64,000 bases of DNA from Rathayibacter tritici (GTDB lineage: Bacteria > Actinomycetota > Actinomycetes > Actinomycetales > Microbacteriaceae), in NCBI RefSeq assembly GCF_002932875.1, contig NZ_PSWS01000001.1, positions 1 through 64,000 on the forward strand, given 5' to 3'. The position numbers were made by a program, and so were the translations under genes. Position 1 is the first letter of the stretch. Every line of letters starts with the position of its first letter. Positions 15,192 through 37,753 of the stretch are shown in pieces. The notes under the pieces are model-generated. The model worked only from the letters and a program-made list of their open reading frames with translations. It did no database searches and had not been told where the DNA came from.

Positions 15192-15252
15192 CGCGAGATG
15201 CCACTTATGACCGGCCTCGCCGGCGTGTCGACGTCAGGAGTGGCATCTCGCG
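15192..15252 (+). repeat. 61-bp palindromic repeat, copy A
   Basis: The arms CGCGAGATGCCACT (15192-15205) and AGTGGCATCTCGCG (15239-15252) are exact inverted copies around a GC-rich centre containing CGGCGTGTCG. Copies of identical length occur at 19033-19093 and 37164-37224. It lies 21 bp beyond the 3' end of the minus-strand gene at 15274. Confidence 0.9.
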
Positions 15253-15273
15253 AGGGGGCGAGAACGGGGCGGG

Positions 15274-15852
15274 TCAGGAGGTGGGGAGGACGAGGGTGCG
15301 CTGGGCAGTGGTGCCGTCGGGGGCGCGGACGGCGAGGGTGATCAGGGTCTCGGAGTCGCGGCAGTCGGCGGTGACGGCGGTGTAGTCGGTCTCGGCGAGG
15401 TCGACGGGGTCGCCGCCCGTCGCGTCGGTAGTGCCGACGGCGAGGCGAGCCGAGGCACCTCCACTCGTCTCCCAGGACAGGGACAGCGGGACGGTGGCGG
15501 TGCGGTCGCCGTCGCAGTCGACGGAGGCGGGAGCGGCGGCGAAGGTGACGATGGCGGGAGATGCGGGGGCGGATCCGGCTGCCGGGGCCACGGCGGACGG
15601 CGACGTGGCGGGCGTCGAACCCGGGGCGGCGGATCCGTCGGAGGCCGCGGTGGAGGTCGGGGCGGTGGAGGCGGGAGCGGCGGCGGGCGCTTCGGAGGCG
15701 GTGCCGGCGGACGCGGTGCCTACGGACGGGGTGCCTGCGGACGGGGCTCCGTCGTCGGCGGGCCGCAGGAGCAGCACGATCGCGAGGACGACGGCGACGA
15801 GTCCGAGGGCGGCGACGATGATCCCTGCGGTGCGGGTGGAGCGGGACGGCAT
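15274..15852 (-). CDS. Secreted or membrane-anchored Ala/Thr/Ser-rich protein
   Basis: A 192-residue protein of unknown function. One membrane helix spans about residues 9-29. A low-complexity Ala/Pro/Ser/Thr linker follows (about 35-98). A small C-terminal domain with two cysteines (about 112 and 163) and a beta-rich, Ig-like look would sit outside the membrane. CAGGAG precedes the ATG. It lies 81 bp downstream of the wall-anchored M14 peptidase on the same strand, so the two surface proteins may be cotranscribed. Confidence 0.75.
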   Translation of the reverse strand: MPSRSTRTAGIIVAALGLVAVVLAIVLLLRPADDGAPSAGTPSVGTASAGTASEAPAAAPASTAPTSTAASDGSAAPGSTPATSPSAVAPAAGSAPASPAIVTFAAAPASVDCDGDRTATVPLSLSWETSGGASARLAVGTTDATGGDPVDLAETDYTAVTADCRDSETLITLAVRAPDGTTAQRTLVLPTS

Positions 15853-15933
15853 CGGTCCTCCTGGTGGCGGTGCGGGACAAAGGGACGGGGAGGGACCGGG
15901 CGGCCAGCGCCCGCTCCCTCCCCGCGGTGAAGG

Positions 15934-18897
15934 CTAGGCCTCCTGGTCCTCGCGGCGGCGGCGACGGGCGATCAGGAGCGAGCCGATGCCGACGGCGAGA
16001 GCACCTCCCGAGAGCAGCAGCCAGGAGCCCGTCTCCACTCCGGTGGAGGGGAGTCCGCCGGGTCCGGTCGGCGCGGGGATCGGCGCGGCCGTAGCGGTCG
16101 GGTCGGGGGCCGTGGTCGGCTCAGGACCGACCGTGGGCTCCGGCGTCGCCGTGGGCTCGGGGGACATGGAGGGCTCGGGAGACATGGAGGGCTCGGGAGT
16201 CGCGGTCGGCTCCGGCGAACCGGTCGGCTCCGGCGAATGAGTCAGGGTCGGCTCCGGCGTCGGTGTCGGCGTGGGCTCCGCGGCCCCCGGCAGCTCGACG
16301 GCCGCTCCCTCCGGCGCCACGGCGAGCAACGCCCGGGCGATGTCGCTGAACGCCCCGACCGGATGGTTGCGGAACACCGGCGAGGTGCCGAAGAGGAAAC
16401 CCTCGGTGCCCGACTCCGTCGAGAACGAGACGGCCGAGGCTTGCCCAGCCGCGTCACTCCGCGACTGCCCCTCGGAGTCGACCCAGTGCCCGGCGACGAA
16501 CGTGCCCTCAGCGGAATAGCTCTGCTCGACGGCGACCGAGTCGTCGAAGCCGGCGAACCACAGCGCCGGCGAGACGAACGCGGTGTCCTGGGGGTAGTCG
16601 CCGAGGACTCCGCCGGCGGGCGTCTCGATCGAGACGATGCCGTTGGAGCCGCGAGTGCCGGTCTGCGCGGTGAGTGTCGCGAGGCCGAAGTCGGCGACGA
16701 ACGCCGCTCCTGCACCGCCGCGACCGACCACATCGCCACCGCCCGCGAGGAACTCCTCGACGACGGCGCGGCCCGCGGCCTGCTCCGGGGTGAAGGAGAG
16801 GGCGCGTCCGACGTAGAGCACGTCGGCGCCCTCAAGGGTGGCGGTGCCCGTGCTGAGCGCGTCCGGATCGACGGCGACCGCGTCGGCGAAACCGAGCTTG
16901 GCCAGTGCGTCCCGGTCCTCGTTCGTGCCGGAGTAGGCGACGCGGAGGGCGTCGAGCGCCTTCCCGTCCTCGGCGCGCACGCGGTCGGCGGTGGTCGCGG
17001 TGAAGTCGACGCCGAAGACGGCGGCGGCTGCCTCGGCGGCGGCGAGTCCCGCAGCATCGGCGCGGAGGGCGACGGTCCCGTCCTCGAACTGCTCGACTGC
17101 GACTCCGTCGGCCAGCAGCGCGTTGAGAGCCTGGTACTCCAGGACTCCGCGCGGCTCGAAGGCCAGGTAGTCGGCGCCCGCGGGGACGGAGCCGGTCGGC
17201 GCGATCGCGGTCACCGGCTCCAGGCCGACGGCCGGGAGCGGGTCGCTGGTCGATCCGATCGCCTGCACGTCGGCACCCCAGAGGAGCGACAGGCTCCAGG
17301 CCGAGACGTCGTACATCTCGGGCACGCGGCTCGAGATGTCGCTGCCGTCGGCGAGAAGGACGTTGGCGAGGCCCCGCACCGACTGGTGCATGTCGACCAG
17401 GTAGGTGCCCGCGGGGTAGGACACTCCTCCGACGCTCGTCGCGGCCGTGGTCCGCGAGACCTCGACGCCGTGGGCGAGGAGCTGCGCGACGAGGGTCTCG
17501 GCGTCCGAGACGGAGCGCTGCGTGCCGTCGACGGGGATGACGTAGGCGCGCGGGTACTCGGTCGTGTAGACGTCAGTCTCGTCCCAGATCTCGGTCCACT
17601 CGGTCGGCGTGCTCGCTGGCAGGTCGGCCGCGGAGACGTCGGCCGGGATCTCGACGGCAGGAGCGCCGGTCGCACCGCGTTCGAAGATCGCGACCTGGTT
17701 GCTGAGCAGGGCGTCGCGGTTGGCTTCGATGTAGTCCACGGAGGCGTCCATGACGATCCCGGCGACCTCGACGTCGATGTCCGCGTTGGCCTGCCCCTGG
17801 GCGACCTCCTCCGGGGTCTCGTTCGCCGTGCGGCCCAGCGGCAACTCCACCGTGTTGGTGATCGCGCCCTGGAAGGCGACGTACTGCGGGGCGAAGATGG
17901 GCGGCCAGTCGTCCCAGCCCGCGCGGATGTCGCGGTAGGGGATCAGGATCGTGCCGGTGTTCTCGGTGGTGGCGCTGCCGTCCTCGGCGAGGTAGGTGTT
18001 GCCCGGCACGTCGGCTTCGACCACGCGGCGCTCGATCTCGAGCGCGGTCGCGTAGGCGTGCGGGAGGAAGAGGTCGTACTCGTAGTTCTCGCCGTGCGGC
18101 GGGCCGCAGGGCTCGACCTGCAGGATCCCGGTGTAGCCGTGGATATCGATGAAGTACGTGGGCTGGAGGACGCTGGAGAGGTCGCGGATCACGGCCGCCT
18201 CGCTGGTCGCTCCGGTGATCATGTCGCGGTTGGGGTCGTAGCCGGCCGCGACGGCGCGCTGGCCGAGGGCCCGGCCGTCGGGGTTGTTGGTGACGGTGAA
18301 GTAGAGACGGTTGCCCTCCAGCAGCGCCTCGGTCGCGGGGTCCTCGGCGGTGGCGACGCCCTCGATGTACTCGAGGATCGCGTCGCTGCCCTCCCACTCG
18401 TTGCCGTGGATATTGCCGTTGAACCACACCGGGACCTTGTAGTCGGCCATCAACTCGGCGTCGGCGGCCGCGGCGGCGGGCTCGTACTTGAGCCGGTCCC
18501 GCCACTGGGTCTGCTGGGCCGTCTCCGCCTCGGTCTCCGGGGCGGTAACGGTCACCAGGTAGATGTCGCGGCCGAGGCCGGATTTCCCGACGACCTGGGT
18601 CGAGACGCGGTCGGAGCGGGCGGCGAGCGCGTTCAGCTGCGGCGCGATGGCGTCGTAGGGAGTGACTCCGCGCAGGAGTGAGGCGTCGGTCGGGTCGACG
18701 GGAACCTCGGTCAGCGGAGTCTGCTGCGGGTAGCTGGTCGGCACGGTGATCGGGGCGGACGGCGGACGCACGAGGTCCACGCGGGTGTAGTCGGCGGGGG
18801 CTGCGGTTGTCGCGGTCGCCGGCGGGGCGACCAACAGGCCACCGGTGGCGAGCGCGAGCGCGGCGCATCCGGAGGCGAAGGCGGTTCGAGATCTCAA
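15934..18897 (-). CDS. Cell-wall-anchored M14 zinc carboxypeptidase
   Basis: A 987-residue secreted peptidase with a signal peptide at residues 1-29. The M14 catalytic domain carries HGNE (164-167) as first zinc ligands and IDIHGYTG with the further His ligand. A long C-terminal region of unclear fold follows. A PTPEP/SPEP-type proline-rich stalk (about 885-945) precedes the sorting signal LPSTG, a hydrophobic helix and RRRRRED. Sortase should link it to peptidoglycan. The start codon is TTG with GGGAAG upstream. It probably trims C-terminal residues from external peptides. Confidence 0.9.
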   Translation of the reverse strand: MRSRTAFASGCAALALATGGLLVAPPATATTAAPADYTRVDLVRPPSAPITVPTSYPQQTPLTEVPVDPTDASLLRGVTPYDAIAPQLNALAARSDRVSTQVVGKSGLGRDIYLVTVTAPETEAETAQQTQWRDRLKYEPAAAAADAELMADYKVPVWFNGNIHGNEWEGSDAILEYIEGVATAEDPATEALLEGNRLYFTVTNNPDGRALGQRAVAAGYDPNRDMITGATSEAAVIRDLSSVLQPTYFIDIHGYTGILQVEPCGPPHGENYEYDLFLPHAYATALEIERRVVEADVPGNTYLAEDGSATTENTGTILIPYRDIRAGWDDWPPIFAPQYVAFQGAITNTVELPLGRTANETPEEVAQGQANADIDVEVAGIVMDASVDYIEANRDALLSNQVAIFERGATGAPAVEIPADVSAADLPASTPTEWTEIWDETDVYTTEYPRAYVIPVDGTQRSVSDAETLVAQLLAHGVEVSRTTAATSVGGVSYPAGTYLVDMHQSVRGLANVLLADGSDISSRVPEMYDVSAWSLSLLWGADVQAIGSTSDPLPAVGLEPVTAIAPTGSVPAGADYLAFEPRGVLEYQALNALLADGVAVEQFEDGTVALRADAAGLAAAEAAAAVFGVDFTATTADRVRAEDGKALDALRVAYSGTNEDRDALAKLGFADAVAVDPDALSTGTATLEGADVLYVGRALSFTPEQAAGRAVVEEFLAGGGDVVGRGGAGAAFVADFGLATLTAQTGTRGSNGIVSIETPAGGVLGDYPQDTAFVSPALWFAGFDDSVAVEQSYSAEGTFVAGHWVDSEGQSRSDAAGQASAVSFSTESGTEGFLFGTSPVFRNHPVGAFSDIARALLAVAPEGAAVELPGAAEPTPTPTPEPTLTHSPEPTGSPEPTATPEPSMSPEPSMSPEPTATPEPTVGPEPTTAPDPTATAAPIPAPTGPGGLPSTGVETGSWLLLSGGALAVGIGSLLIARRRRREDQEA

Positions 18898-19032
18898 GCG
18901 GAGTTCTTCCCTTGTCGAGGCGTGACGGAACGGATCGGGCCCCCGTCGGCGTCTGGACCTCCGAATCGGATGTGAACCCTCTCAGGAAGATAGAGGTGTC
19001 ATGTTTCCGTCACATGTCGGCTGAGTTGCCTT

Positions 19033-19093
19033 CGCGAGATGCCACTTGAGTACGCCTCGCCCGGCGTGTCGCGTACCCAAGTGGCATCTCGCG
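19033..19093 (+). repeat. 61-bp palindromic repeat, copy B
   Basis: Arms CGCGAGATGCCACTTG (19033-19048) and CAAGTGGCATCTCGCG (19078-19093) are perfect 16-bp inverted copies. The inner TACGC (19051-19055) and GCGTA (19071-19075) also pair. It abuts the broken 3' end of a GntP-like gene. Confidence 0.92.
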
Positions 19094-19368
19094 AGGGGGT
19101 TAGCGGAGGAGGGGGCGAGGACGGAGGCGAGGGAGACGCCGACGGTCACCGATGTGAGGGCGCCACGAACGGACTGGCCGAGGAAGCTCTCGCCAAAGCC
19201 GGTGGTCATCGTCGAGACGGTGTCGACGGGCCCGAGCCCGGTCAGCAGGCCGATCGCGGCGGCGCCGACGGCCAGCGCCAGCACCGGATTGAACCGGAAC
19301 CGCACGATGGAGACGACGACCACGACGATCGCGAGGGCGACGACGCCCAGGGTGTACCACTCGGGCAT
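19094..19368 (-). pseudogene. Truncated GntP-family gluconate-type permease
   Basis: Only about the first 90 residues of a roughly 450-residue permease remain. The ATG at 19368 has a strong GGAGGAGG site. The start MPEWYTLGVVALAIV, the FRFNPVLALAVGAAAIGLLTGL helix region (shown in part) and DTVSTMTTGFGESF match the N-terminus of GntP-type proton symporters. The reading frame then runs into repeat copy B and stops at 18982. The rest of the gene is absent, so transport function is lost. The deletion border coincides with the repeat. Confidence 0.7.
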
Positions 19369-19449
19369 GACGACCTCCTCCGCCCGCAACTGCGCGTGCC
19401 GTCACGCCCTAGAGGGCCCCCCGCGCACTCCCCGTCCGGGCCGGGGCCC

Positions 19450-19455
19450 TAGCGT
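19450..19455 (+). promoter_or_regulatory. -10 box of leaderless oxidoreductase gene
   Basis: TAGCGT ends six nt before the ATG at 19462. No ribosome site is seen. Confidence 0.5.
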
Positions 19456-19461
19456 GAACGC

Positions 19462-20484
19462 ATGGCACTAACGCTCCCCGAACCCCGACTCCCCTCCCTC
19501 CTCGACTCCCCCGTCCTGCGCTGGGGGGTGATCGCCCCCGGCTCGATCGCCGGCTCGTTCGTCGAGGCGCTGCAGAAGCACACCCGGCAGCGCGTGGTCG
19601 CGGTCGGCTCCCGCTCGCTCGAGCGGGCAGAGCGATTCGCGAGTCGGTTCGGGATCGAGCGGGCCTCCGCCGGCTACGAGGCCGTGGTCGAGGATCCGGA
19701 GGTGGACGTCGTCTATGTCGCCTCGCCGCACTCGGAGCACGCCCGTCAGGCGCTGCTCGCGATCGCCGCGGGGAAGCACGTCCTGGTTGAGAAGCCGTTC
19801 GCGCCGACTCCTGGCGAGGCCGAGATGATCGTGCACGCCGCGCGCGACGCGGGCGTGTTCGCGATGGAGGCGATGTGGATGCGGTACCTGCCGCACATGG
19901 ACGTGGTGCGGCAGCTGCTCGCGGACGGGGCGGTCGGCGCACCCGCCGTGGTGACAGCCGACTTCGGTGCGGCCTTCGACTTCGACCCCGCCAGCCGCAT
20001 CTTCGACCCGGCGCTGGCCGGCGGCGGCCTGCTCGACGTCGGCGTCTACGCCTCCTCCTTCGTCTCGATGGTCGCGGGCACCCCGCAGAGCACCGTCGTC
20101 GCCGGGAGCCTGACGTCGACCGGCGTCGACGCGACCGCGACGATCGTCGGCAGCCACGCGCATGGCGTGCAGTCGGTGGCAACGTCGACCGTGCTTGCGG
20201 ATACCCGCCATGCGGCGAGCGTTGCGGGCCGGGCGGGCCGGATCGATGTGCACCCGTCGTTCTGGATGCCCAGCGGCGTGACGCTCACCCGCGGCTCCGA
20301 GAGCGGATCGTGGACGGACGAGTCCCCGCTCCAGGGTGGGCAGGGCCTGGCGTGGGAGGCGCTGCACGTCGCGCAGTACGTGTCGGAGGGGCGCACGGAG
20401 TCGCCGCTGCACCCGCTCGACGAGGTGGTCGCCGTGGTGCGCACGCTCGACGACGCGCGCCGTCGGCTGGGCGTCTCCGTCTGA
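19462..20484 (+). CDS. Gfo/Idh/MocA-family oxidoreductase
   Basis: A 340-residue NAD(P)-dependent sugar or polyol dehydrogenase. The N-terminal Rossmann fold starts WGVIAPGSIAGSFVEAL, and the family hallmark GKHVLVEKPF supplies the catalytic Lys (about residues 105-114). The C-terminal alpha/beta domain includes GGGLLDVGVYA. Substrate not determined. It appears to be a lone gene, followed by a 19-bp repeat array before the convergent histidine kinase. Confidence 0.92.
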   Translation: MALTLPEPRLPSLLDSPVLRWGVIAPGSIAGSFVEALQKHTRQRVVAVGSRSLERAERFASRFGIERASAGYEAVVEDPEVDVVYVASPHSEHARQALLAIAAGKHVLVEKPFAPTPGEAEMIVHAARDAGVFAMEAMWMRYLPHMDVVRQLLADGAVGAPAVVTADFGAAFDFDPASRIFDPALAGGGLLDVGVYASSFVSMVAGTPQSTVVAGSLTSTGVDATATIVGSHAHGVQSVATSTVLADTRHAASVAGRAGRIDVHPSFWMPSGVTLTRGSESGSWTDESPLQGGQGLAWEALHVAQYVSEGRTESPLHPLDEVVAVVRTLDDARRRLGVSV

Positions 20485-20505
20485 GGGCGGCTGCCGCCGG
20501 CCTCC

Positions 20506-20729
20506 GTCCGATGTGCAGGGTTTTGCTTGCTTTGCAGGGGTCTGTGCGATTCGCAGGGGATGGTGCGATCTGCAGGGGACGGTGCGATTCGCAGGGGATG
20601 GGCTGCGTTCGCAGACGGTTTGCTCGCAGGATGGGGCGTCCGGCCCGGATGCCCTGAAGATCGCACACAGTCCTGCAGATCGCACGGTCCCCTGCACAGC
20701 GCACAGCGTCCTGCACATCGCGCGCGTGC
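20506..20729. repeat. 19-bp-period repeat array in two opposed blocks
   Basis: Plus-strand units beginning GTCCGAT or GTGCGAT occur at 20506, 20544, 20563 and 20582, with a degenerate unit at 20525, each followed by a GCAGGGG core. After a spacer the same unit appears on the other strand, with ATCGCAC-type starts at 20660, 20679, 20698 and 20717, again exactly 19 bp apart. The whole intergenic region between the two convergent genes consists of this structure, which could fold into alternative hairpins. No spacer diversity, so not CRISPR. Confidence 0.85.
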
Positions 20730-22274
20730 TCAGCCCGCCGGCAGCTCCACCCGGAAGCTCGTACGCCCCGGCTCGGACGTGACGAGCACGCGCCCGCCGT
20801 GGGCGTCGACGACCGCCGCCACGATCGCAAGTCCCAGCCCCGTCGATCCGGTACTGCGCGCCCGCGAGGAGTCGCCGCGGGCGAACCGCTCGAACAGCAC
20901 CGGCATCAGATCCGGGGCGATCCCTGGGCCGGAGTCGGTGACCGTCACCACCGCGATCGGCCGCCCGTCCGACATCTCCTCGGCGAGGGCCGCCACCACG
21001 CGCGTTCCGGGAGGTGTGTGCACGGTCGCATTGCGCAGCAGATTAGCGACCACCTGGTGCAGGCGGAAACCATCGCCGCGGATCTCGATCGGCTGCTCGG
21101 GGAGCTCGAGGTCCCACTCGTGGTCGGGGCCGGCGGCATGGGCGTCCGAGAGCGCCTCGATCATGAGCAGGGTCAGGTCGACGGGCTCCTTCTCGAGAGC
21201 GCGGCCCTCGTCGAGGCGGGCGAGCAGGAGGAGATCCTCGACCAGTGAGGTCATCCGGGTGGCGGCCGATTCGATCCGGTCGAGGGAGTAGGCGGCCGAC
21301 TCCGACAGCTCAGTGCCGCCGCGGCGGGGCAGCTCCGCGTAACCGCGGATTGCGGCGAGGGGGGTCCGCAGCTCGTGCGACGCATCGGCCACGAACTGCC
21401 GGACCTTGTTCTCGCTCGCCTGCCGCGACTCCAACGCCCCGGTGACATGGTCGAGCATGCGGTTGAAGGCGGCGCCCACGCGGCCGACCTCGGTGCGGAT
21501 GTCGGCGTCCTCCTCCGGCACCCGCTCGACGAGCTCGACATCGCCGCGATCGAGCGGCAGCTCGGCGACCCGTGTCGCCGTCGCCTCCACCCGCTCCAGC
21601 GGTCGCAGAGCCACGCGGATGATCGCGGTCGCGATCAGGGCGACCAGCAGCATCGCGAGCAGCACCACCACCACGACCACCCAGGCGAGGGAGGCGAGCG
21701 TCTCGGCCACCTCGCCCAACGGGACACCGACGACGACGATGGAGCCGTCGATCACCGCCGCGCGCACGCGGTAGGTACCGAGGCTGCCGGGCAACTCGAT
21801 CGTCACCTCGTCGCTGGCTGCGGCGACCGCCGCCGCGAGCACGGAATCGGCGGTGTCCGAAAACTGCCTGCAGACTCCGTCGGCGTCGACATAGGCGCCG
21901 ATGAAGGAGCCGTCGGAGTCCCGGACGGCGGTGATCGTGCTGAGGTTCTGGCTCGGGCCGCTGCCGAAGGCTGCGCTCGGGCAGGTCGTTGCCCGGTTGA
22001 TCACGCTGAGCCCGCTGAATCCGCTCGGTCCGTCGAAGTCCTGGAGGCGCTTGAGCGACTGGCTCAGCGACGTGTCCGTACTTCCGTAGAGGATCGAGCG
22101 CGCCGAGAGCACGCTGACCGCCCCCACGACACCTGCCGTCACCGCGACGAGCGCGACCACGGCGACGACCATCCGCCGCCTCAGCGTCCACGGCGCGCGC
22201 AGGCTGCCGCGGGAGCGGCGGAGTGCGGATCGGGTCGCGAAGTCGCCGAGCGTGGGGCGGCCTCCGAGACTCAC
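20730..22274 (-). CDS. Sensor histidine kinase
   Basis: A 514-residue membrane sensor. Two membrane helices (about 34-58 and 197-222) flank an extracellular sensing domain with two or three cysteines. A HAMP domain follows. The phosphoacceptor His300 lies in DASHELRTPLAAIRGY, the ATP-binding N box is VVANLLRNATVHTPPG, and the G boxes are DSGPGIAPD and STGLGLAIV. The GTG start overlaps the response-regulator stop. It phosphorylates that regulator in response to an unknown envelope signal. Confidence 0.93.
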   Translation of the reverse strand: MSLGGRPTLGDFATRSALRRSRGSLRAPWTLRRRMVVAVVALVAVTAGVVGAVSVLSARSILYGSTDTSLSQSLKRLQDFDGPSGFSGLSVINRATTCPSAAFGSGPSQNLSTITAVRDSDGSFIGAYVDADGVCRQFSDTADSVLAAAVAAASDEVTIELPGSLGTYRVRAAVIDGSIVVVGVPLGEVAETLASLAWVVVVVVLLAMLLVALIATAIIRVALRPLERVEATATRVAELPLDRGDVELVERVPEEDADIRTEVGRVGAAFNRMLDHVTGALESRQASENKVRQFVADASHELRTPLAAIRGYAELPRRGGTELSESAAYSLDRIESAATRMTSLVEDLLLLARLDEGRALEKEPVDLTLLMIEALSDAHAAGPDHEWDLELPEQPIEIRGDGFRLHQVVANLLRNATVHTPPGTRVVAALAEEMSDGRPIAVVTVTDSGPGIAPDLMPVLFERFARGDSSRARSTGSTGLGLAIVAAVVDAHGGRVLVTSEPGRTSFRVELPAG

Positions 22275-23032: not shown

Positions 23033-23917
23033 AGCTCCAGTATCGGGAGTTTCCTATGGACGAGCTATGACTCTGTGATGCCGTCGCTGTGGGCACCCGA
23101 TGCGCCGTCGGCGGATCTGCGGCGAGTGCCGTCACCAGCACCGAGACCGTGAGCGCTCCCGCGCTTGTCTGCGACGGACGGCGTTCTGCCGCAGACGTGG
23201 CGAAACGGAGCGACGTGAGCGAGATGAGTATCAGAAACCCGACACCATTCCTCTCGCGCTGAGTAGTAGGACCTCAAGGAGTCGCCAAGCATCTGCTCGA
23301 CGAAGCGGAGACACTCCGGAGAATCCGTATCGGACACGACACAGAGCTGGTGGACATCAGCACTACACCCTGGCTGGGGGTAGAACGAGCTTGTACTGCC
23401 GGTCCGTGGATTGCTAGCGTACCCGGGAAAGGAAGCGTGAAACGTCGATCTCCTATCGCCGTCGGTACAGCCGTTGAACTCAAAAGGCTTTTCTCTCGGA
23501 ATAACTCCGAGAGAGCTGGTGAAGCGAGGACTTGACGATCAGGCCGGCTTACTCCTCGACCACTACATCCATAGTCAACCTTCGGGGGAGGCCTGAAGCA
23601 GGTGAATCCGCTCATGAATCACGTCCACGCCACCCTCACATCGGCGGAAGATCACGACACGATCCCCTTGTCTCTCGACGATACAGAAGCTGACAATTCT
23701 AGCGGTCGAGGTGATCGCATGCCGCCTGCCTCGCAGAACCACTCTCACGAGAGTAGTCATCGTGCCAACGTCGCGTCGTGACTCTTCGTCAGCGCCTGAA
23801 AATCAGGACTGAACCCAGGAGCACTTGCCCGGCCTTGTCGCCGCGCCCGCACTGGGCTGGCCGTGGTCAACTCCGGATGTCTGGACAGCGTTTACACACA
23901 GTAGAGGAGCTACCAGC
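23033..23917. other. 885-bp region without a convincing gene, reduced GC
   Basis: From about 23200 to 23800 the base composition is visibly less GC-rich than the neighbours, and no frame shows a protein of recognisable family. A 61-codon minus-strand frame at 23575-23760 has protein-like composition (VSFCIVERQGDRVVIFRRC) but lacks a ribosome site. The stretch may be a decayed acquired gene. Confidence 0.5.
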
Positions 23918-29119: not shown

Positions 29120-29500
29120 ATGGCCAAGGCGACACAGACGATGAAGGCTGCGACCGCGGCGAAGAAGCTGCAGGTCTACCTGCCCGCGACCCCGGAGGAG
29201 TTTCAGGAGTCGGCGATCACGCGCGAGCAGTACGACGAGCTCGTTGCGAACCCGCCCGCCTGGCTCGTGCAGCTGCGCGAGGAGGGGCCGCACCCCCGCT
29301 CCGTCATCGCCTCCCGGTTGAACGTCTCGATCTCGGGCCTGGCCCGCGGTGGCGTGACCGATGCCCTGACCACTCCCGAGATCCAGGCCCTGCTCGACGA
29401 GGTCCCCGAGTGGCTGCGCGTCGAGCAGAACCGCTACGCCGAGGTCCGCCGCGAGCAGGCGCGCCTCACGTCCGAGCGCGCCGCCAAGTCCACCGCCTAG
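29120..29500 (+). CDS. DUF5997 family protein
   Basis: A 126-residue protein of a conserved actinobacterial family of unknown function. Recognisable parts are KKLQVYLPATPEEFQ near the start and PPAWLVQLREEGPHPR centrally. The latter is followed by VIASRLNVSISGLARGG, a stretch resembling a helix-turn-helix. It is probably small, cytosolic and perhaps DNA-binding. The divergent LysR-like protein without a helix-turn-helix may be its partner, which is inference. A terminator shared with the convergent operon follows. Confidence 0.85.
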   Translation: MAKATQTMKAATAAKKLQVYLPATPEEFQESAITREQYDELVANPPAWLVQLREEGPHPRSVIASRLNVSISGLARGGVTDALTTPEIQALLDEVPEWLRVEQNRYAEVRREQARLTSERAAKSTA

Positions 29501-29532
29501 CCCCCTCCCGCCGCGAGGGGAGGGCGGGGGCT
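29499..29532. terminator. Terminator between DUF5997 and convergent oxidoreductase operon
   Basis: AGCCCCC at 29499-29505 pairs with GGGGGCT at 29526-29532, and the pairing continues inward through CCC and GGG with one mismatch. It overlaps the DUF5997 stop codon. Confidence 0.65.
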
Positions 29533-30679: not shown

Positions 30680-31788
30680 CAGGAGAGGGTCGCTTCGGTC
30701 GGGTCCCAGCTCTCGGGGAGGGCGGGGCGGGGAGTCGCGGTGCTGGCGACGAGGATCTTCTCGCCGGTGTCGGCGGCCTCGAGGAGCGAGAGCATCACGT
30801 CGGTGACGTGGTAGGCCAAGCCTCCGGAGGCGGCTTCTGGGCGGTCGGCCCGGATCGCGCGGGCGAGCTCGAGCACGCCAGCGCCGCGGGAGGCGGTCGA
30901 GCCGATCGCCGCGATGCGCTCCGGCTCGGCGGACCCGCGCCGGTGCAGCATGAGATCGCCGTCGTGCATGTTCGGGTCGGGGAGGACGAGGGTGCCCTCG
31001 GAGCCGTTGATCTCGACGAAGCCGGTGCGCGGCAGGCTCGACTCGAAGCTCCACACGCCCTGGGCGGACGCTCCGGATTCGAAGCGGAGCAGCCCGCCGA
31101 TGTGCGTGGGGACGGTCACCGGGAACTCGGTGCCCTCCTTCGCGCCGGAGCCGATGACGCGGTTCGCGCGGGCCTGGGACGAGACGGCGGTGACGCTCTC
31201 GACCGGGCCGAGGTTCTGCACGAGCGTGGTGATGTAGTACGGGCCCATGTCCAGCAGCGGCCCGCCGCCCTCGGCGAAGAAGAACTCCGGGTTCGGGTGC
31301 CAGGACTCCGGGCCGGGGCCCTGAAAGAGGGTGAGGGCCGAGAGCGGCGTGCCGATCGCTCCGCTCTCGATGATGCGCTGCGCCGTCTGCAGGCCCGCGC
31401 CGAGGAAGGTGTCGGGAGCGCTCGCGACGCGCAGCCCCTTCTCCTCCGCCAGGGCGAGCAGCTCGGTTCCGCTGACGCGGTCGAGCGAGAAGGGCTTCTC
31501 GGTCCAGACGTGCTTGCCCGCCTCGACCACACGGCGCGCGACCTCGACGTGAGCGGCGGGAATCGTGAGATTCACCACGATCTCGATGCCCTCGTGCGCG
31601 AGGAGGTCCTCGACGCTGCCGGAGGCGGGGACGCCGAACGCCTCGGCCTGGGCCTTCGCGCGCTCGAGATCGATGTCGGCGACGACGAGAACCTCGAGGT
31701 CCGGGAAGACGGTGAGGTTCCTGAGGTATTCGGTGCTGATGTTCCCGGCGCCGATGACGCCGACGCCCACGCGGCCGGTGCCGCTCAT
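30679..31788 (-). CDS. Gfo/Idh/MocA-family oxidoreductase
   Basis: A 369-residue paralogue of its neighbour. The nucleotide-binding start is VGVGVIGAGNISTEYLRNL and the catalytic region is GKHVWTEKPFS (about 93-103). Its end overlaps the next start by one base (TGATG) and its start overlaps the isomerase stop by 4 bp. Paired dehydrogenases of this family often act on successive or related sugar substrates. The exact substrate cannot be read from the sequence. Confidence 0.93.
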   Translation of the reverse strand: MSGTGRVGVGVIGAGNISTEYLRNLTVFPDLEVLVVADIDLERAKAQAEAFGVPASGSVEDLLAHEGIEIVVNLTIPAAHVEVARRVVEAGKHVWTEKPFSLDRVSGTELLALAEEKGLRVASAPDTFLGAGLQTAQRIIESGAIGTPLSALTLFQGPGPESWHPNPEFFFAEGGGPLLDMGPYYITTLVQNLGPVESVTAVSSQARANRVIGSGAKEGTEFPVTVPTHIGGLLRFESGASAQGVWSFESSLPRTGFVEINGSEGTLVLPDPNMHDGDLMLHRRGSAEPERIAAIGSTASRGAGVLELARAIRADRPEAASGGLAYHVTDVMLSLLEAADTGEKILVASTATPRPALPESWDPTEATLS

Positions 31789-32540
31789 GCGCCCAGCCCC
31801 GAGACGTAGCGGTGGGCCGACTCGAGGCCCTCGAAGATGTCGCCGGCGTACGCGTCGAATTCGAGCACGGGCAGGGCCTGCGGAGCGGCGGCGAGGATCG
31901 CCGGGACGTCCATAGCGCCCTCGCCCGCGGGCACTTGCTCCTGAATGTCGGCCGAGACCGGCCCATCCTTCACGTGCAGGAAGCGCACCTGGTCACCGAG
32001 CCGGCCGAGCACCTCGACCGGGTCGTCGCCACCGACCGCCGCCCAATAGGTGTCGAGTTCGAGCACCATGCGCGGGTCGAGGAGGCCGGCGAGGTGCTCG
32101 AAGGCGCTGCGGCCGTCGATCCGGTTCTCGAACTCGAAGGCGTGGTTGTGGTAGCCGAGCACCAGGCCGCGGGTGGCGGCGGAGTCGACCAGCGCGTTGA
32201 GCTCGTCGGCAATGCGTGCGACCTCGTCGGCGGTGCTCCAGCGGGTCGGATCGACGAAGGGGTCGATCACGGTCTCGACGCCGAGGGCCGCGGCTGCGTC
32301 AAGGATCTCGTCAACGGTGGCGTCCCCCTGCGGGCCGAGGAGGCGCGCGTGAGCGCTCGGAGCGCGCAGTCCGCTGGCCGGAAGCGCCGCGCGGTAGGCG
32401 TCGGCCAGATCGACGAACCCGAAGAGTTCGACCGTGGTGAAGCCGATCCCCGCGAGCCGGTCGAGGGTGGCCGGCAGATCGGCCGCGAGCGGCTCGCGCA
32501 CCGAGTACAGCTGAACAGAAAGGTCTGGGCGTGTGGCCAC
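31785..32540 (-). CDS. Sugar phosphate isomerase/epimerase (xylose isomerase-like TIM barrel)
   Basis: A 251-residue AP-endonuclease-2/IolE-like TIM barrel enzyme. Conserved features include GFTTVELFGF near the N-terminus, LGYHNHAFEF (metal His and Glu region, about 137-146), VLELDTYWAAVGG and FLHVKDG. It is the first gene of the operon, with a GTG start preceded by AGGAG. It likely isomerises or epimerises a keto-sugar that the two dehydrogenases then process. Confidence 0.92.
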   Translation of the reverse strand: MATRPDLSVQLYSVREPLAADLPATLDRLAGIGFTTVELFGFVDLADAYRAALPASGLRAPSAHARLLGPQGDATVDEILDAAAALGVETVIDPFVDPTRWSTADEVARIADELNALVDSAATRGLVLGYHNHAFEFENRIDGRSAFEHLAGLLDPRMVLELDTYWAAVGGDDPVEVLGRLGDQVRFLHVKDGPVSADIQEQVPAGEGAMDVPAILAAAPQALPVLEFDAYAGDIFEGLESAHRYVSGLGA

Positions 32541-32684
32541 CGGTGGGGCTCCTGATCGACGGTGAGAGGTGTATCTCGAACCCTACGCGGACTTTTGCTC
32601 ATGGACAAGCAAAACTCGGCCGTAAGGACCGCCAAGTCGCGCCTCCACCGCACAGAAGGAGGGGCGCTGTGGTTAACTCTGGCC

Positions 32685-33836
32685 ATGTCCCCGCGCCGCC
32701 GCACCACCGTCAGCGCGGTCGGTGAGCTGCTGCTCCTGCTGGCCGACCGGGCGCCCCGGACACGGGCCGACGTCGTCGCCGAGACAGGCCTGCCCCGCGC
32801 GGCCGTCTCGGCCCAGCTCGACGTGCTGACCGCCTCCGGCCTCATCGCCCGGCAGGACGACGCCCCATCCTCCGGAGGCCGCCCCGCGGCCCGCGTCGCC
32901 TTCGACGCCCGGGCGCGCAGTCTCCTCGCGATCGACCTCGGCGCCGCCCACGCCGTCATCGCCCTCACCGACCTCGACGGCACGGTCCTCGCCCGCCGCC
33001 GCGAGATCATCGCGATCGCCGACGGACCCCTCGCTGTCCTCGGCCATGCCCTCGACGTCGCCGCCGCCCTGCCCGAGCACACCGCCGAGGCCGGCCCGCT
33101 CGCCGGAGTCGGCGTCGGCGTCCCGGGCCCGGTCGAGCACGCTACCGGACGCCCCGTAAAGCCGCCGATCATGCCCGGCTGGGACCGCTTCGACATCCCC
33201 GAGTTCGTCGCACGCCGTCTGCCGGTACCCGTCCTGGTTGACAACGATGTGAACCTGCTGGCCCTCGGCGAGCACGCGGACCACTACGCCGATGTCGACG
33301 ATCTCCTCTACGTGAAGGTGTCCACCGGCATCGGCGCAGGGATCGTGAGCGGCGGCGCTCTGCAACGCGGAGCCCTCGGGGCCGCGGGCGACCTCGGGCA
33401 CGTGCAGGTCCCCGGCGACCGCGGCGAAGCCGACCTGGAGGCGATCGCGAGTGGCTCGGCGATCGCCCGGCGACTCGCCGACGCCGGGATCGACGCCGCC
33501 AGCACCTCCGACGTCGTCACCCTGCTGACCGACGGGGACCCGACCACCGTCGAGCTCACCCGCGCGGCCGGTCGCGACATCGGCGAAGTACTCGCCACCT
33601 GCGTGAACCTGCTCAATCCCTCCGTCATCGTCGTCGGCGGCAGCATCGCCCAGGCCAGTCACGAGGTCCTCGCCGGCGTGCGCGAGGTGGTCTACCGCCG
33701 CTCCCTGCCGCTGGCGACCCGCTCGCTCGACATCGTGCAGGCCGCGGCCCAGGGCGGAGGCGTGCGCGGCGCCGCCCTGATGGTGCGGCGCCACCTGCTC
33801 TCCCCCACGCACGTCGACGCCTTCCTCGCCGCCTGA
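32685..33836 (+). CDS. ROK-family transcriptional regulator
   Basis: A 383-residue repressor. The N-terminal helix-turn-helix is TRADVVAETGLPRAAVSAQLD (about 26-46). A sugar-kinase-like ROK domain follows, with LLAIDLGAAHAVIAL, a PVLVDNDVNLLALGE core and GGALQRGALGAAGDLGHV. The usual cysteine-rich zinc motif after this is missing (the stretch reads QVPGDRGEADLE). It is divergent from the isomerase/dehydrogenase operon, which it probably represses. The ATG at 32685 lacks a close ribosome site, so a leaderless start is likely. Confidence 0.9.
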   Translation: MSPRRRTTVSAVGELLLLLADRAPRTRADVVAETGLPRAAVSAQLDVLTASGLIARQDDAPSSGGRPAARVAFDARARSLLAIDLGAAHAVIALTDLDGTVLARRREIIAIADGPLAVLGHALDVAAALPEHTAEAGPLAGVGVGVPGPVEHATGRPVKPPIMPGWDRFDIPEFVARRLPVPVLVDNDVNLLALGEHADHYADVDDLLYVKVSTGIGAGIVSGGALQRGALGAAGDLGHVQVPGDRGEADLEAIASGSAIARRLADAGIDAASTSDVVTLLTDGDPTTVELTRAAGRDIGEVLATCVNLLNPSVIVVGGSIAQASHEVLAGVREVVYRRSLPLATRSLDIVQAAAQGGGVRGAALMVRRHLLSPTHVDAFLAA

Positions 33837-33927
33837 CCCGTCGCTGCGCGCTGATCGATCCGCACGAGAGGTCCCCCGGTCGGCGTGCCGATTCGACCGG
33901 GCGCCGCAGGGAGCAGACAATGAATCG

Positions 33928-34569
33928 GTGCCCGACCTGCAGCTCTCCTTCCCCTGGGAGACGCAGCCCGTTTTCACGGACGCCGAGCCCCCGCATCTCC
34001 GGAGGGTCGTCGCCGACTCCTCGGACCGCATCGCCTGGCTCCGCGCCCGCTCGCGCGGCATCACCGCCACCGACGTCGCCCGCCTCTCCTCCCCCGCCGC
34101 CATCGGCAAGGCCGCGCTCGACAAGCTCTACGGCACCGGATTCGGCGGCAACGCCTTCACCGAGCACGGCCGCGCCCGCGAACCCGAGATCGCGGCCTGG
34201 GTGCGCAGCGAGCACGCGATCGAACCGAGCAGCACCCTCTTCCACGCCAGCCAGGAGCGACGCCACCTCGCGACCCCCGACGGCATCGGCCTGCGCGACG
34301 ACGGCCGGCTGGAACTCTGCGAGATCAAGACCACGACGAAGCCGTGGCGCAGCATTCCGCGCCACTACCTGCGGCAGGTGTTCTGGCAGCAGTACGTGCT
34401 CGGGGCCGAGCGCACACTCGTCGTCTGGGAGCAGCACCGCGACTTCGTGCCGATCGAGGGCGAGCCGAACGCCCGCTGGGTCGACCGCGACGAGGACGAG
34501 ATCCACATGCTGGTGCGCCTGGCCGGGATGCTGATGGCCGAGCTGCACGAGCGGACGCGCGCGCGGTGA
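33928..34569 (+). CDS. YqaJ-like viral recombinase family nuclease
   Basis: A 213-residue PD-(D/E)XK exonuclease of the lambda-Exo/YqaJ family. The catalytic Asp is in ATPDGIG (about 117-123) and the ExK pair is in LCEIKTTT (about 130-137). The RARSRGITATDVARL segment is the family N-terminal signature. The GTG start has GACAAT six nt ahead. Such nucleases are often phage-derived, but no other phage gene adjoins. It overlaps the hydrolase gene by 4 bp, and its codon use is like its neighbours. Confidence 0.87.
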   Translation: MPDLQLSFPWETQPVFTDAEPPHLRRVVADSSDRIAWLRARSRGITATDVARLSSPAAIGKAALDKLYGTGFGGNAFTEHGRAREPEIAAWVRSEHAIEPSSTLFHASQERRHLATPDGIGLRDDGRLELCEIKTTTKPWRSIPRHYLRQVFWQQYVLGAERTLVVWEQHRDFVPIEGEPNARWVDRDEDEIHMLVRLAGMLMAELHERTRAR

Positions 34570-35321
34570 CGGTCCTCCTCCTGCACGGCCTGGGCGGCGA
34601 CCGCTCTCAGCCGCTGGGGCTGCTGCGCTCGGCCCTACCCGCCGGGAGCGAGGTCATCGCGCCGGACATCCGCGCCCACGGCGCGTCCGACCTCCTCGGC
34701 GCGGCCGGCGACTTCGCCCTCGAGACGCTGGCCGACGAGGTGACCGAGGAGGTCGTGCGGGCCGGAGCCGCGCACAAGCCGCTCACAGTGCTCGGCATCT
34801 CGATGGGCGCCGCGATCGCCCTGCGCCTGGCCGTGCGCCGGGTGCTGCCGATCGACCGCGCCGTCTTCGTGCGCCCCGCGTTCACGTCCGAGCCGCTGCC
34901 CGAGAACCTCACGGTGTTCCCCGTCATCGCGCAACTGCTGCACGACCACGGCGCGAAGCGCGGCGAGCGGATGTTCCGCGCATCGGGCCTGTTCGCGCGT
35001 GCCGCCGCGGTGTCCCCCGCGTCCGCGGAGGCGCTGACGCAGCAGTTCCGCTCGCCGCAGGCCGCGGAGCGCGCGGTCCGCCTCGCCGAGATCCCGCGGA
35101 ACGCCGCCTACCGAGACTCCGCGGAGCTGGGCGAGGTGATTGCGCGCACCCTGGTCATTGCGGCCGACCGCGACCCCGTCCATCCGGTCGAGGTCGCGCA
35201 GGCATGGGCTAGAGCTCTTCCGGACGCGAACTGCGAGCGGGTGCCGTCGCGCGATGCGGGCCTCGCAGCCCAGCAGGACCGGATCCGCGGGCACGTGCGC
35301 GACTGGCTCGCTCGACGCTGA
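34566..35321 (+). CDS. Alpha/beta hydrolase
   Basis: A 251-residue serine hydrolase. The oxyanion HGLGGD lies near the N-terminus, the nucleophile Ser is in GISMGAA (about residues 79-85), and the acid Asp is in AADRDPVHP. The usual C-terminal His is not obvious. The last part (VPSRDAGLAAQQDRIRGH) diverges from typical hydrolases. The GTG start overlaps the nuclease stop. Substrate unknown. Its 3' end overlaps the DUF998 gene on the other strand by 113 bp. Confidence 0.82.
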   Translation: MTVLLLHGLGGDRSQPLGLLRSALPAGSEVIAPDIRAHGASDLLGAAGDFALETLADEVTEEVVRAGAAHKPLTVLGISMGAAIALRLAVRRVLPIDRAVFVRPAFTSEPLPENLTVFPVIAQLLHDHGAKRGERMFRASGLFARAAAVSPASAEALTQQFRSPQAAERAVRLAEIPRNAAYRDSAELGEVIARTLVIAADRDPVHPVEVAQAWARALPDANCERVPSRDAGLAAQQDRIRGHVRDWLARR

Positions 35322-35934
35322 CGTCCTCGAGAGCGAGCACCAGGCCGACGGACGCGAGCCACAGCACCGCGATCGCCGTCGCCACGAACTCGAGCGTCCC
35401 ACCCAGCCGCAGCCAGACACGCAGCAGCGACAGAATCCCGCCCGTCCCGGCGACGACCGCCACTGAGATCCCGGCCGCGAGCGAGAGCCGCGCGAGCACC
35501 GGGCGCCCCCGCACCGTCGCCAGCTGGAGCATCGCCGCGCACGCCGCCGCGAAGCCGAGCACCGCCGCAGAAGTGTGGACCAGATCCTGCCAGCGGAACG
35601 CGGGGCCGACCGGGAGCGGGCAGCCGGCCGTGCAGGTCACCTGCGAGGCGAGCGCGAAGCAGGCAGCGGCCAGGAGGATCGCACCGGCCGGGCGGAGGGC
35701 GGGCAGCAGCCGTGCGCGCACCGGCCACGCTCCCGCACCGATCAGCGCGCCGCCCGCCGCGACGAGCAGCAGGGCGGCCTCGAAGGCTCCGGCCGTCGGC
35801 AGATCCGGTGCGCCCATCTCGCTGACGTAGACCCAGCGGCTGGTGCCGATGCTGATCCGTGCCGCCAGGAGGACCGCGAGTCCCGCCAGAACCAGGAGCG
35901 CGCCGCCGAGGAGGAGGGAACGTCGGCGTCGCAT
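35209..35934 (-). CDS. DUF998-type membrane protein
   Basis: A 241-residue protein with about six membrane helices, of the DUF998 kind. The central FRWQDLVHTSAAVLGFA segment is typical of the family. Two cysteines in TCTAGCP lie outside the membrane. The ATG at 35934 has GAGGGA upstream. The final 35 or so residues, rich in Arg, Ala and Pro, are encoded opposite the hydrolase 3' end and may be poorly conserved. Function unknown. Confidence 0.75.
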   Translation of the reverse strand: MRRRRSLLLGGALLVLAGLAVLLAARISIGTSRWVYVSEMGAPDLPTAGAFEAALLLVAAGGALIGAGAWPVRARLLPALRPAGAILLAAACFALASQVTCTAGCPLPVGPAFRWQDLVHTSAAVLGFAAACAAMLQLATVRGRPVLARLSLAAGISVAVVAGTGGILSLLRVWLRLGGTLEFVATAIAVLWLASVGLVLALEDVSVERASRARARGSGPAGLRGPHRATAPARSSRPEEL

Positions 35935-36117
35935 TCCCTCATCGTGCCAGATCGGGCGCCGCGTCCCCGCGCGGCAATCTTCTCCCGAGGGTGACACCCC
36001 CGTAACAGCACCGACTCATTGCCTCGGTTGACTGGTCACGGCGTCGGATGCGGGGAATCGGGGGCGCCGTCCTCGGCCCTGCTCCACCCGTACGCCTCAG
36101 TGACACGGAAGGCGACG

Positions 36118-37146
36118 ATGCACACCAGCGCGCTCGGACACGGTCTTGCGATCGGCGAGATCCCGGAGGAGGAGGTCCTCCCCGACTCGATGACGGCAGC
36201 GGTGATCGACGCGCCGGGCGACGCGTCCGCTCTGCACCTCGCGACCGTGTCGACCCCCTCCGCCATCAACGCGGAGTTCCTCGTGAAGGTGGTCGCTGCC
36301 GGCGTGAATCCTCTCGACGCGAAGACACGGGCCGGGCAGGGGGTCGCCGCTCAGATCGCCTCCTATCCGGCCGTGCTCGGGCACGACTTCTCCGGCGTCG
36401 TCGTCGCGAGCCCCTACCCGGCGCATCCGCTGCGGCCGGGCGACGAGGTGTACGGCTTCGTGATGGTGCCCCGTTACTCCGGCTCCTACGCCGAGTACGT
36501 CAGCGTGCCCAGCGTCTCGCTCGCGCGGAAGCCGTCCACGCTCTCGCACGTCGAGGCGGCCGGTGTCCCGCTCGCCGCCCTCACCGCGTGGGGGATGGTG
36601 GTCGAGCTCGCGAAGGCGCACGAGGGTCAGCGGATCCTGATCCACGCCGGCTCCGGCGGTGTCGGCCACTTCGCCGTGCAGTTCGCCGCGTACTTCGGCG
36701 CCTCAGTGATCGCGACGGGATCCACTCGCAACGTGCACTGGCTGAGCGAACTCGGCGCCGCGCAGGTGATCGACCATACGACCGAGCGCTTCGACGAACT
36801 GCTGTCCGGAGTCGACGTGGTGATCGACCTCGTCGGCAATGTGCACGACGACACCGGCTCTCGTTCGCTGACGGTCCTGCGGCCCGGGGGCCTGATCGTG
36901 AACGCGCCGACCGGAAGCTGGCCCGGGTTCTTCGAGGAATCAGCGGAGGCGGGAGTGCGCGCCTCCACCTACCGCGTCGCGCCCGATGGAGCGACCCTCG
37001 GCGTGGTGTCCCGGCTGCTGGAGTCGGGGGACGTGCGGGTCTTCATCGACCGCGTCTTCCCGCTCGCCCGCGCCTGCGAGGCGCACGAGCAACTCGAGAC
37101 AGGGCACACCCGCGGCAAGATCGTCCTCACCGTCTCCGAGTGCTGA
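36118..37146 (+). CDS. Zinc-less medium-chain dehydrogenase/quinone oxidoreductase-like protein
   Basis: A 342-residue NADPH-dependent oxidoreductase of the MDR/QOR group. The N-terminal GroES-like domain includes GVNPLDAKTRAGQG and VLGHDFSGVV. The Rossmann motif is AGSGGVGHFAVQFA (about 182-195). The catalytic zinc Cys/His set of alcohol dehydrogenases is absent. GGAAGG precedes the ATG at 36118. It probably reduces an enone or quinone. It ends 20 bp inside the frame of the convergent acetyltransferase. Confidence 0.92.
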   Translation: MHTSALGHGLAIGEIPEEEVLPDSMTAAVIDAPGDASALHLATVSTPSAINAEFLVKVVAAGVNPLDAKTRAGQGVAAQIASYPAVLGHDFSGVVVASPYPAHPLRPGDEVYGFVMVPRYSGSYAEYVSVPSVSLARKPSTLSHVEAAGVPLAALTAWGMVVELAKAHEGQRILIHAGSGGVGHFAVQFAAYFGASVIATGSTRNVHWLSELGAAQVIDHTTERFDELLSGVDVVIDLVGNVHDDTGSRSLTVLRPGGLIVNAPTGSWPGFFEESAEAGVRASTYRVAPDGATLGVVSRLLESGDVRVFIDRVFPLARACEAHEQLETGHTRGKIVLTVSEC

Positions 37147-37753
37147 CCGCCCGTCCTCCCCGCCGCGAGATGCCACTTCGGTACGCCCCGCCCGGCGTGC
37201 CGCGTCCCTCAGCGGCATCTCGCGGAGTGGGGAGGGGGCGCTCGAGGACGTCGTCGTCCTCGAGGCGGTCGCCGACGAGGAAGCGCTTGCGGCCGACGAC
37301 ATCGAAGCCGTGCTTCGCGTAGAAGCGCTGGGCGCGGGCGTTCTCCTCGTTGACGCCGAGCCACACGCCCGCGGCCCCGTGCGCCTGCGCCTCCTCGAGG
37401 CTCGCGGCCATCAGGGCGGCCGCCGCTCCGGAGCCGTGCCTGCCGGGGAGGAGATAGAACTTGCTGAGCTCGACGGTGGGACGCAGCCGGATCGCCGCGA
37501 CGACGTCGGCGTCGGTGGGCTCCCCGCGCACCAGCATCGCGTAACCGGTCAGCGCGCCGGACTCGTCGTCGACAAGAAGTGAGCGGAGCGGGTCCGCGAG
37601 GTGGTCGCGGAAGCGCTCGACCGAGAGGACCGTGCGCACGAACTCGGCCTTCGCCTCCTCGGTGGTGTGGGGCGGGCAGGCCAGCGGGAACGTCGCCGCG
37701 GCCAGCTCGGCTAGGGCGGCGGCGTCGGCGGGAGAAGCCCGGCGGACGGTCAC
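37127..37753 (-). CDS. GNAT-family N-acetyltransferase with repeat-derived C-terminus
   Basis: A 208-residue frame. Residues 1-172 form a normal GNAT domain, with the acetyl-CoA loop LLPGRHGSGAAAALM and the late motif AQRFYAKHGFDVVGRK, reaching the expected end at DDDVLERPL. The last 35 or so residues, starting PTPRDAAEGRGTPGG, are encoded by the 61-bp repeat copy C and flanking DNA. They are not part of the family. The element seems to have removed the native stop codon. The GTG start is uncertain. Confidence 0.82.
   Translation of the reverse strand: MTVRRASPADAAALAELAAATFPLACPPHTTEEAKAEFVRTVLSVERFRDHLADPLRSLLVDDESGALTGYAMLVRGEPTDADVVAAIRLRPTVELSKFYLLPGRHGSGAAAALMAASLEEAQAHGAAGVWLGVNEENARAQRFYAKHGFDVVGRKRFLVGDRLEDDDVLERPLPTPRDAAEGRGTPGGAYRSGISRRGGRAVSTRRR
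37164..37224 (+). repeat. 61-bp palindromic repeat, copy C
   Basis: The left arm CGCGAGATGCCACT (37164-37177) matches copies A and B exactly. The right arm AGCGGCATCTCGCG (37211-37224) has one change from a perfect inverted match. Length and orientation equal the other copies. It lies within the 3' end of the GNAT reading frame, 17 bp past the stop of the convergent oxidoreductase gene. Confidence 0.88.

What the first reader, a model, noticed from the sequence alone, without database searches (positions are those of the whole stretch)
15192..37224. A 61-bp palindromic repeat family with three full copies
Sites 15192-15252, 19033-19093 and 37164-37224 are each exactly 61 bp. They share the arm CGCGAGATGCCACT with its inverted copy, plus a directional centre containing CGGCGTG. 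All three have the same orientation and sit at the 3' side of a minus-strand gene. I know of no named element with this sequence. It could be a REP/MITE-like mobile unit, a structured terminator or a recombination-prone site.
Basis: seen in the sequence. Interest (0 to 1): 0.7.

Follow-up and report, generated by a model that had tools for sequence, protein, structure and literature searches.

The report
61-bp palindromes at Rathayibacter gene ends
The three sites belong to a large family of 61-bp hairpin-forming repeats that sit just behind genes in Rathayibacter and some relatives; where it could be compared they are mostly inherited in place rather than freshly inserted, no fitting transposase was found, and they probably serve as gene-end boundary hairpins.

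Summary
Three 61-bp palindromes lie at the stated places, share outer arms and a directional centre, and belong to a dispersed family. Of 15 searched genomes of the genus of one carrier (Rathayibacter), 14 have 1-87 exact-arm copies; of 398 genomes of its family, 15 do. Length is fixed: 131 of 138 copies have a 55-bp core although 44-72 was allowed.

The mobile-unit reading is only partly supported. All three window copies have counterparts at the same gene ends in three other Rathayibacter genomes (flank identity 79-87%). Between two of these genomes 53 of 56 comparisons find both sites occupied. No Y1/RAYT transposase in 15 carriers; no longer element with these ends in the DNA scanned.

Copies sit just behind stop codons (59 of 74 tandem copies within 40 bp, 28.5 expected). 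Stems vary in pairs, the centre is flipped at some orthologous sites, and there is no U-tract or G-U excess.

Best reading: a REP-like palindrome family kept at gene 3' ends as an orientation-blind boundary hairpin, maintained largely at DNA level. New as a family, not as a kind.

The parts
15192..15252 (+). 61-bp palindromic element, copy 1; 21 bp behind the stop of minus-strand ORF 15274-15852; counterpart in three relatives (one flank only in the third)
19033..19093 (+). 61-bp palindromic element, copy 2; 6 bp behind minus-strand ORF 19100-19405; counterpart in three relatives (one flank only in the third)
37164..37224 (+). 61-bp palindromic element, copy 3, one change in the right arm; between convergent alcohol dehydrogenase and GNAT genes; centre in the opposite orientation in three relatives
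42594..42607 (-). single arm-like stretch, possibly a remnant, at the site where one relative has a full copy and another a decayed one
29499..29532 (+). a different GC-rich hairpin at a gene 3' end where two relatives carry the 61-bp element

Best explanation
A REP-like family of dispersed intergenic palindromes of Rathayibacter and some other Microbacteriaceae. Shown: copies have a fixed length, near-invariant outer arms (GAGATGCC and its inverse) and, in Rathayibacter, a near-invariant directional centre (CGGCGTGTCG); in the genomes compared they are mostly inherited in place; they lie just behind stop codons on either strand and in either orientation; their variable stem stays mostly paired. 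Inferred: each copy acts as an orientation-blind boundary hairpin behind a gene (end-of-transcript or supercoiling barrier). Inferred: uniformity and pairing are kept largely at DNA level, by exchange between copies and by template-switching within the folded palindrome, which also flips the centre. How copies first spread is not known.
For: Fixed length: 131 of 138. Mostly intact: one carrier (G185) has 36 exact, 10 one-change and 4 two-change copies among the 50 found with up to 3 mismatches in 29 fixed bases. Placement: of 174 distinct copies 79 convergent, 76 tandem, 13 divergent, 6 inside called genes; element-free gaps are 110 convergent of 714; 65 of 74 tandem copies are nearer the stop than the start, 59 within 40 bp against 28.5 expected. 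Inherited in place: 53 of 56 comparisons, sites counted from both genomes. Constraint in 34 ortholog pairs at 23 sites: outer arms 1.1% and right centre 3.3% divergence, against 11.7% in flanks and 47.5% in left centre. Pairing: covariation score 0.167 against 0.073 shuffled, 0 of 500 as high; of 6 listed two-change outer arms, 4 changed both partners of one pair. Element-free gene ends also tend to carry hairpins (z below -3 in 28% of 103 convergent and 22% of 370 tandem 3' regions, against 4% of 221 and 5% of 168 5' regions). At three empty orthologous sites another hairpin stands in the place, one of them weak. Orientation to the upstream gene is not fixed: 36 sense, 26 antisense, 12 unassigned of 74.
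Against: No transcript or termination data exist here. 13 copies lie in divergent gaps, where they end no called gene. Exact-arm copy number runs from 0 to 87 within the genus, so the function is not needed by all. The placement could arise because insertions elsewhere are removed. The number of stem pairs with a change on both sides does not exceed shuffles (7 against 6.1; 122 of 500), and one-sided changes outnumber paired double ones (68 against 32 of 112). One of the three replacing hairpins is weak (z -2.05).
Confidence: 0.5

Rival explanations
1. An ordinary bidirectional intrinsic terminator acting as RNA, whose shared sequence is only descent.
For: Stop-codon proximity and convergent excess; strong folds on both strands; hairpins common at other gene ends.
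Against: No U-tract: T is 7.7% of the 15 bases behind 73 tandem copies. In transcript orientation G-U pairs (27) do not exceed A-C mismatches (32) in those copies. The centre is sequence-conserved whichever way it faces the gene, which a terminator loop does not need.
Confidence: 0.2
2. A non-autonomous mobile unit (MITE or REPIN-like) still moved by a transposase not yet identified.
For: Many near-identical copies in few genomes; species-typical inner arms.
Against: No PF01797 protein in 15 carriers; 338 paired arms against 14 single ones, none of which marks a longer element as far as I could see; no protein family recurs widely beside copies; no match in plasmids, phages or viral contigs; both sites occupied in 53 of 56 comparisons. 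Other transposase families were not searched.
Confidence: 0.15
3. A site of specific recombination that flips its own centre and trades gene cassettes, in the manner of integron attC sites.
For: Centre flipped in 10 of 34 ortholog pairs, at 7 of 23 sites, and in 2 of 20 pairs of a systematic two-genome set; three indels bounded exactly by directly repeated copies.
Against: No integron integrase above its cut-off in 7 carriers. Only 3 of 48 indels are so bounded, which plain deletion between repeats explains. Several flips come with sequence replacement.
Confidence: 0.1
4. A DNA-level binding site (topoisomerase or nucleoid protein) where supercoils gather behind genes, as proposed for E. coli BIMEs (recalled).
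For: Conserved arms and centre, orientation-blind, more frequent in convergent gaps.
Against: Double-strand binding does not by itself need paired variation in the inner stem; no protein was tested.
Confidence: 0.15

Closest known systems
REP / BIME / REPIN elements
   Same: Dispersed intergenic palindromes, mostly downstream of genes and between convergent or tandem genes (passages of PMC3733652)
   Different: 61 bp and fixed length against 20-40 bp; no GTAG tag; no RAYT-type transposase in 15 carriers; centre conserved and flippable
MITEs (features recalled)
   Same: Short repeats with inverted ends, many copies
   Different: No parent element with the same ends in the DNA scanned, no target duplication seen, mostly inherited in place
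Intrinsic terminators
   Same: Strong hairpin just behind the stop codon
   Different: Family-wide conservation of arms and centre, no U-tract, no G-U excess
Integron attC sites (59-base elements; recalled)
   Same: Palindrome of about 60 bp at gene 3' ends; direct copies bound a few gene-sized indels
   Different: No integron integrase above cut-off in 7 carriers, no attC core motif seen, cassette-like events rare
Plastid hairpin-loop small inversions (mechanism recalled; one search gave only a list of plastid papers)
   Same: Loops between stems flip at orthologous sites
   Different: Here a dispersed multi-copy family with a conserved loop

Membership tests
REP elements (RAYT-associated) | Small dispersed intergenic palindrome | tested here: met
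   longer (61 bp) than the 20-40 bp given in PMC3733652
REP elements (RAYT-associated) | GTAG (or CGTC) tag at one end | tested here: not met
   Rathayibacter copies begin CGCGAG and end CTCGCG; tag rule from PMC3733652 passages
REP elements (RAYT-associated) | Y1 transposase (RAYT) in the genome | tested here: not met
   0 of 15 carriers; 5 of 14 control genomes positive
MITE | Autonomous element with the same inverted ends | tested here: not met
   338 paired and 14 single arms in the loci and blocks scanned, none marking a longer element by eye; whole genomes not scanned for this
MITE | Target-site duplication | tested here: inconclusive
   no clean empty site to read it from; none seen by eye
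Intrinsic terminator | Hairpin directly behind stop codons | tested here: met
   59 of 74 tandem copies within 40 bp; folds
Intrinsic terminator | U-tract behind the stem | tested here: not met
   T 7.7% of 15 bases behind 73 copies; pattern scan of 12000-21000, which holds copies 1 and 2, finds none at them
Intrinsic terminator | Stops transcription | not testable with these tools
   no RNA data
Integron attC | Integron integrase present | tested here: not met
   0 of 7 carriers above the cut-off of TIGR02249; sub-threshold hits in 7 of 7 and in 14 of 14 controls
Integron attC | Direct copies bound gene cassettes | tested here: inconclusive
   3 of 48 indels

The most novel reading that the evidence does not exclude
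The 61-bp unit is a DNA hairpin recognised as such by a host protein that binds the GAGATGCC arms and the CGGCGTGTCG centre, flips or replaces the centre, and keeps copies uniform at gene ends: a palindrome system with its own maintenance factor and no transposase of its own.
Probability: 0.12. Interest if true: 0.75.

Novelty: new variant of a known kind. Interest (0 to 1): 0.45.

Why it matters
Dispersed bacterial palindromes are often explained by RAYT-driven mobility. Here is a family with up to about 100 nearly perfect copies per genome that mostly stays in place between species, keeps its length and two sequence blocks, pairs its variable stem and can flip its centre, with no such transposase found. 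That makes it a good natural test of whether such repeats persist by function, by homogenisation or by hidden mobility. It also marks gene ends in a G+C-rich group.

Tried and rejected
RAYT origin: rejected for the 15 carriers searched. Longer parent IS: none seen among 14 single arms. A recurring neighbour gene: clusters of genes beside copies reach at most 6 members, including re-fetched copies of one locus and orthologs. Carriage on plasmids, phages or viral contigs: no match (also 7). Integron. Published name: the arm sequences occur in three papers, unrelated by title. Searches for Rathayibacter, Microbacteriaceae, Clavibacter and actinobacterial palindromes or terminators gave nothing that I recognised as this family, judged from listings and the passages. 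'Undescribed' rests on these searches of an open-access library only; supplements were not searched. Rfam: only three tRNAs reach the cut-off in the window.

Weak points of my own tests. Outer-arm invariance in L001-L120 is circular in part, because the scan pattern demanded it; less circular support is, which allow a few mismatches, so strongly decayed copies would still be missed. Copies were oriented by the CGGCGTG motif before columns were counted. The 34 pairs cover 23 sites, come from loci chosen for holding copies, and are not independent; one flip (L044/L051) has a nearly self-complementary centre. Of the 3 'empty' calls, one partner holds a decayed copy and one was placed through another repeat family and is unreliable. 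Alignment A1 mixes centre orientations, which does not touch the pair counts. My gene caller is a simple codon-score script. I did not compute how many indel breakpoints should touch a copy by chance. The Cellulomonas and Blastococcus-MAG hits are single, and the Arthrobacter-MAG contig is short: chance or mis-binning is possible. could not see the Blastococcus copy (its gap is longer than that pattern allowed), and could not see the Cellulomonas copy (its arm differs by one base), so the 0 of 198 counts exact AGTGGC arms only.
Full report
What was checked. The window is 69.9% G+C. Its longest DNA matches among the loci then held are Rathayibacter, 78-85% identical over pieces of about 1 to 4.9 kb. 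No whole genome is held for it, so the family was studied in relatives. The three copies are as described, except that the third lies between convergent genes. There the window's GNAT frame reads through the element, while in G001, G002 and G003 it stops before it.

A real family. Of these, 113 are titled Rathayibacter or Naasia; the rest are three of a Microbacteriaceae isolate (VKM Ac-2854) and one each titled Frigoribacterium (MAG), Cellulomonas, Blastococcus (MAG) and Arthrobacter (MAG). Of 138 copies read on the + strand, 131 have a core of exactly 55 bp (61 with the CGC tips) although 44-72 was allowed. Exact-arm copies in the 15 genomes of the genus of G001: 83, 8, 1, 38, 13, 9, 2, 81, 1, 65, 0, 87, 2, 3, 6. 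Family level: 15 of 398, reversed-pattern control 0. Order of the Cellulomonas genome: 0 of 198 with exact arms. With up to three mismatches in 29 fixed bases, G185 has 50 copies, 36 exact, all on one contig and unevenly spread (KS p 0.0005). For G001, 97 copies are listed with up to two mismatches, 82 of them exact; its list of three-mismatch hits and that of G002 were cut.

Anatomy. In the 12 G185 copies with changed arms, every arm change lies in columns 12-14 or 48-50; two further copies have one change in the centre. So columns 4-11 (GAGATGCC) and their partners are unchanged in all 50 of those. In G001 a few listed copies do vary there. In 105 distinct copies of Rathayibacter, the window and VKM Ac-2854, columns 30-39 (CGGCGTGTCG) are each 95-100% one base, while columns 24-29 vary freely (copies were oriented by this motif). 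The inner stem, columns 15-23 with 39-47, varies but stays mostly paired; Naasia has quite different inner arms of the same length. On 40 aligned copies the covariation score is 0.167 against 0.073 for shuffles (0 of 500 as high), and 91.8% of cells pair against 85.7% shuffled and 23-52% slid. The number of pairs with two-sided change is not above shuffles (7 against 6.1, 122 of 500). Of 6 listed two-change outer arms in G185 and G001, 4 changed both partners of one pair (chance about 1e-6 under independent changes). Template-switching within a palindrome would give such double changes without selection.

Age and turnover. All three window copies have counterparts at the same gene ends in G001, G002 and G003 (Rathayibacter VKM Ac-2857, VKM Ac-2856, Leaf185). 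For two of them the G003 match is on one flank only, because gene order changes on the other side. Of 73 copies in three pairs of blocks of G001 and G002, counted from both genomes, 53 have an occupied counterpart, 3 were called empty and 17 have no syntenic partner in the fetched DNA. In 34 ortholog pairs at 23 sites divergence is 1.1% in outer arms, 3.3% in right centre, 6.6% at the tips, 24% in inner stem, 47.5% in left centre and 11.7% in flanks. Of 112 changed stem pairs, 68 changed on one side, 32 on both sides with pairing kept, 12 on both sides without. The centre is flipped relative to flanks in 10 of 34 pairs, at 7 of 23 sites; in a systematic G001-G002 set, in 2 of 20. The third window copy faces the other way in all three relatives. 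Inner arms are typical of a species group (mostly GTGCA in G001/G002, GGTAC-like in several others). In 19 of 72 G001/G002 copies the two arms differ at two or more of five positions, which I read as exchange between copies.

Placement. Of 174 distinct copies from loci L001-L184 (the window not included), 79 are convergent, 76 tandem, 13 divergent and 6 inside called genes; 10 were skipped at locus edges. Element-free gaps of at least 61 bp are 110 convergent of 714. Among 74 tandem copies in gaps with under 1500 bp around the copy, 65 are nearer the stop, and 59 are within 40 bp of it against 28.5 expected if placed evenly in their gaps. Orientation to the gene is 36 sense, 26 antisense, 12 unassigned. 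Gene ends without the element carry strong hairpins more often than gene starts. At three orthologous sites without the element another hairpin stands in its place, with z -9.19, -3.12 and -2.05 against single-base shuffles (the last is weak). At other element-free orthologs I did not look for one; at one the gap is only about 10 bp.

RNA or DNA. Behind 73 tandem copies T makes up 7.7% of the next 15 bases, and in transcript orientation G-U pairs (27) do not exceed A-C mismatches (32). A classical terminator is therefore not the simplest account, and the pairing looks kept at DNA level. This is an argument from small numbers.

Mobility and recombination. No Y1 transposase in 15 carriers (5 of 14 controls positive); other transposase families were not searched. 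Arms occur almost only in pairs (338 against 14). No match in plasmids, phages or viral contigs. Of 48 indels of at least 250 bp between G001 and G002 blocks, 7 touch a copy and 3 are bounded exactly by directly repeated copies. This fits deletion between repeats. No integron integrase above cut-off in 7 carriers.

Comparison. Passages of PMC3733652 describe REPs as 20-40 bp palindromes, most of them tagged GTAG or CGTC, mostly behind genes and often with RAYTs; this family shares placement, not tag, length or transposase. In its main text Rathayibacter, Clavibacter, Leifsonia and Actinobacter- do not occur. In PMC12306157 Rathayibacter, Microbacteriaceae and Clavibacter do not occur. In PMC2267715 Leifsonia, Actinobacter- and Streptomyces do not occur. 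The passages shown of PMC5552033 on repeats in Rathayibacter toxicus do not describe such an element. Further palindrome families exist in the same genomes, so the 61-bp family is one of several.

Verdict. A real palindromic repeat family, undescribed as far as I could search; REP-like, not shown to be mobile, most likely a gene-end boundary hairpin with DNA-level upkeep. What protein or process keeps it uniform is open.

Noticed in passing
window 13228-13270: Another palindrome with CCGGCTCGCAGG / CTGCGAGCCGG arms; similar hairpins occur in the blocks of G001, G002 and G003.
   Followed up: partly
window 20496-20617, 20649-20715 and 39339-39384: 19-bp direct repeats with a GCAGGG core, an inverted set next to them and one distant copy.
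   Followed up: no
blocks of G001 and G002 (L121-L140, L185-L222), many places: A more frequent palindrome family with GGGCGTATCGAGA / GGGCTACTCGA arms: 91 and 12 hairpins counted, overlapping ones included. Papers holding its strings are unrelated by title.
   Followed up: partly
L185:19656-19875; also L124 and L190: Clustered short palindromes AAGTTGCGGTAGTCG / CGACTACCGCAACTT, and a 56-66 bp family with GAGTCGCCCGAGAAGG arms.
   Followed up: no
window 37127-37224: The GNAT acetyltransferase frame reads through the element in the window; in three relatives it ends in a stop just before the element.
   Followed up: yes
G185 contig C1: The 50 copies are unevenly spread: none between about 0.78 and 1.37 Mb, dense from 2.0 Mb on.
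   Followed up: partly
L144:2870-2960 (G003): A near-perfect hairpin of about 69 bp with arms CGAGGGAACCCCG sits where G001 and G002 have the 61-bp element.
   Followed up: partly
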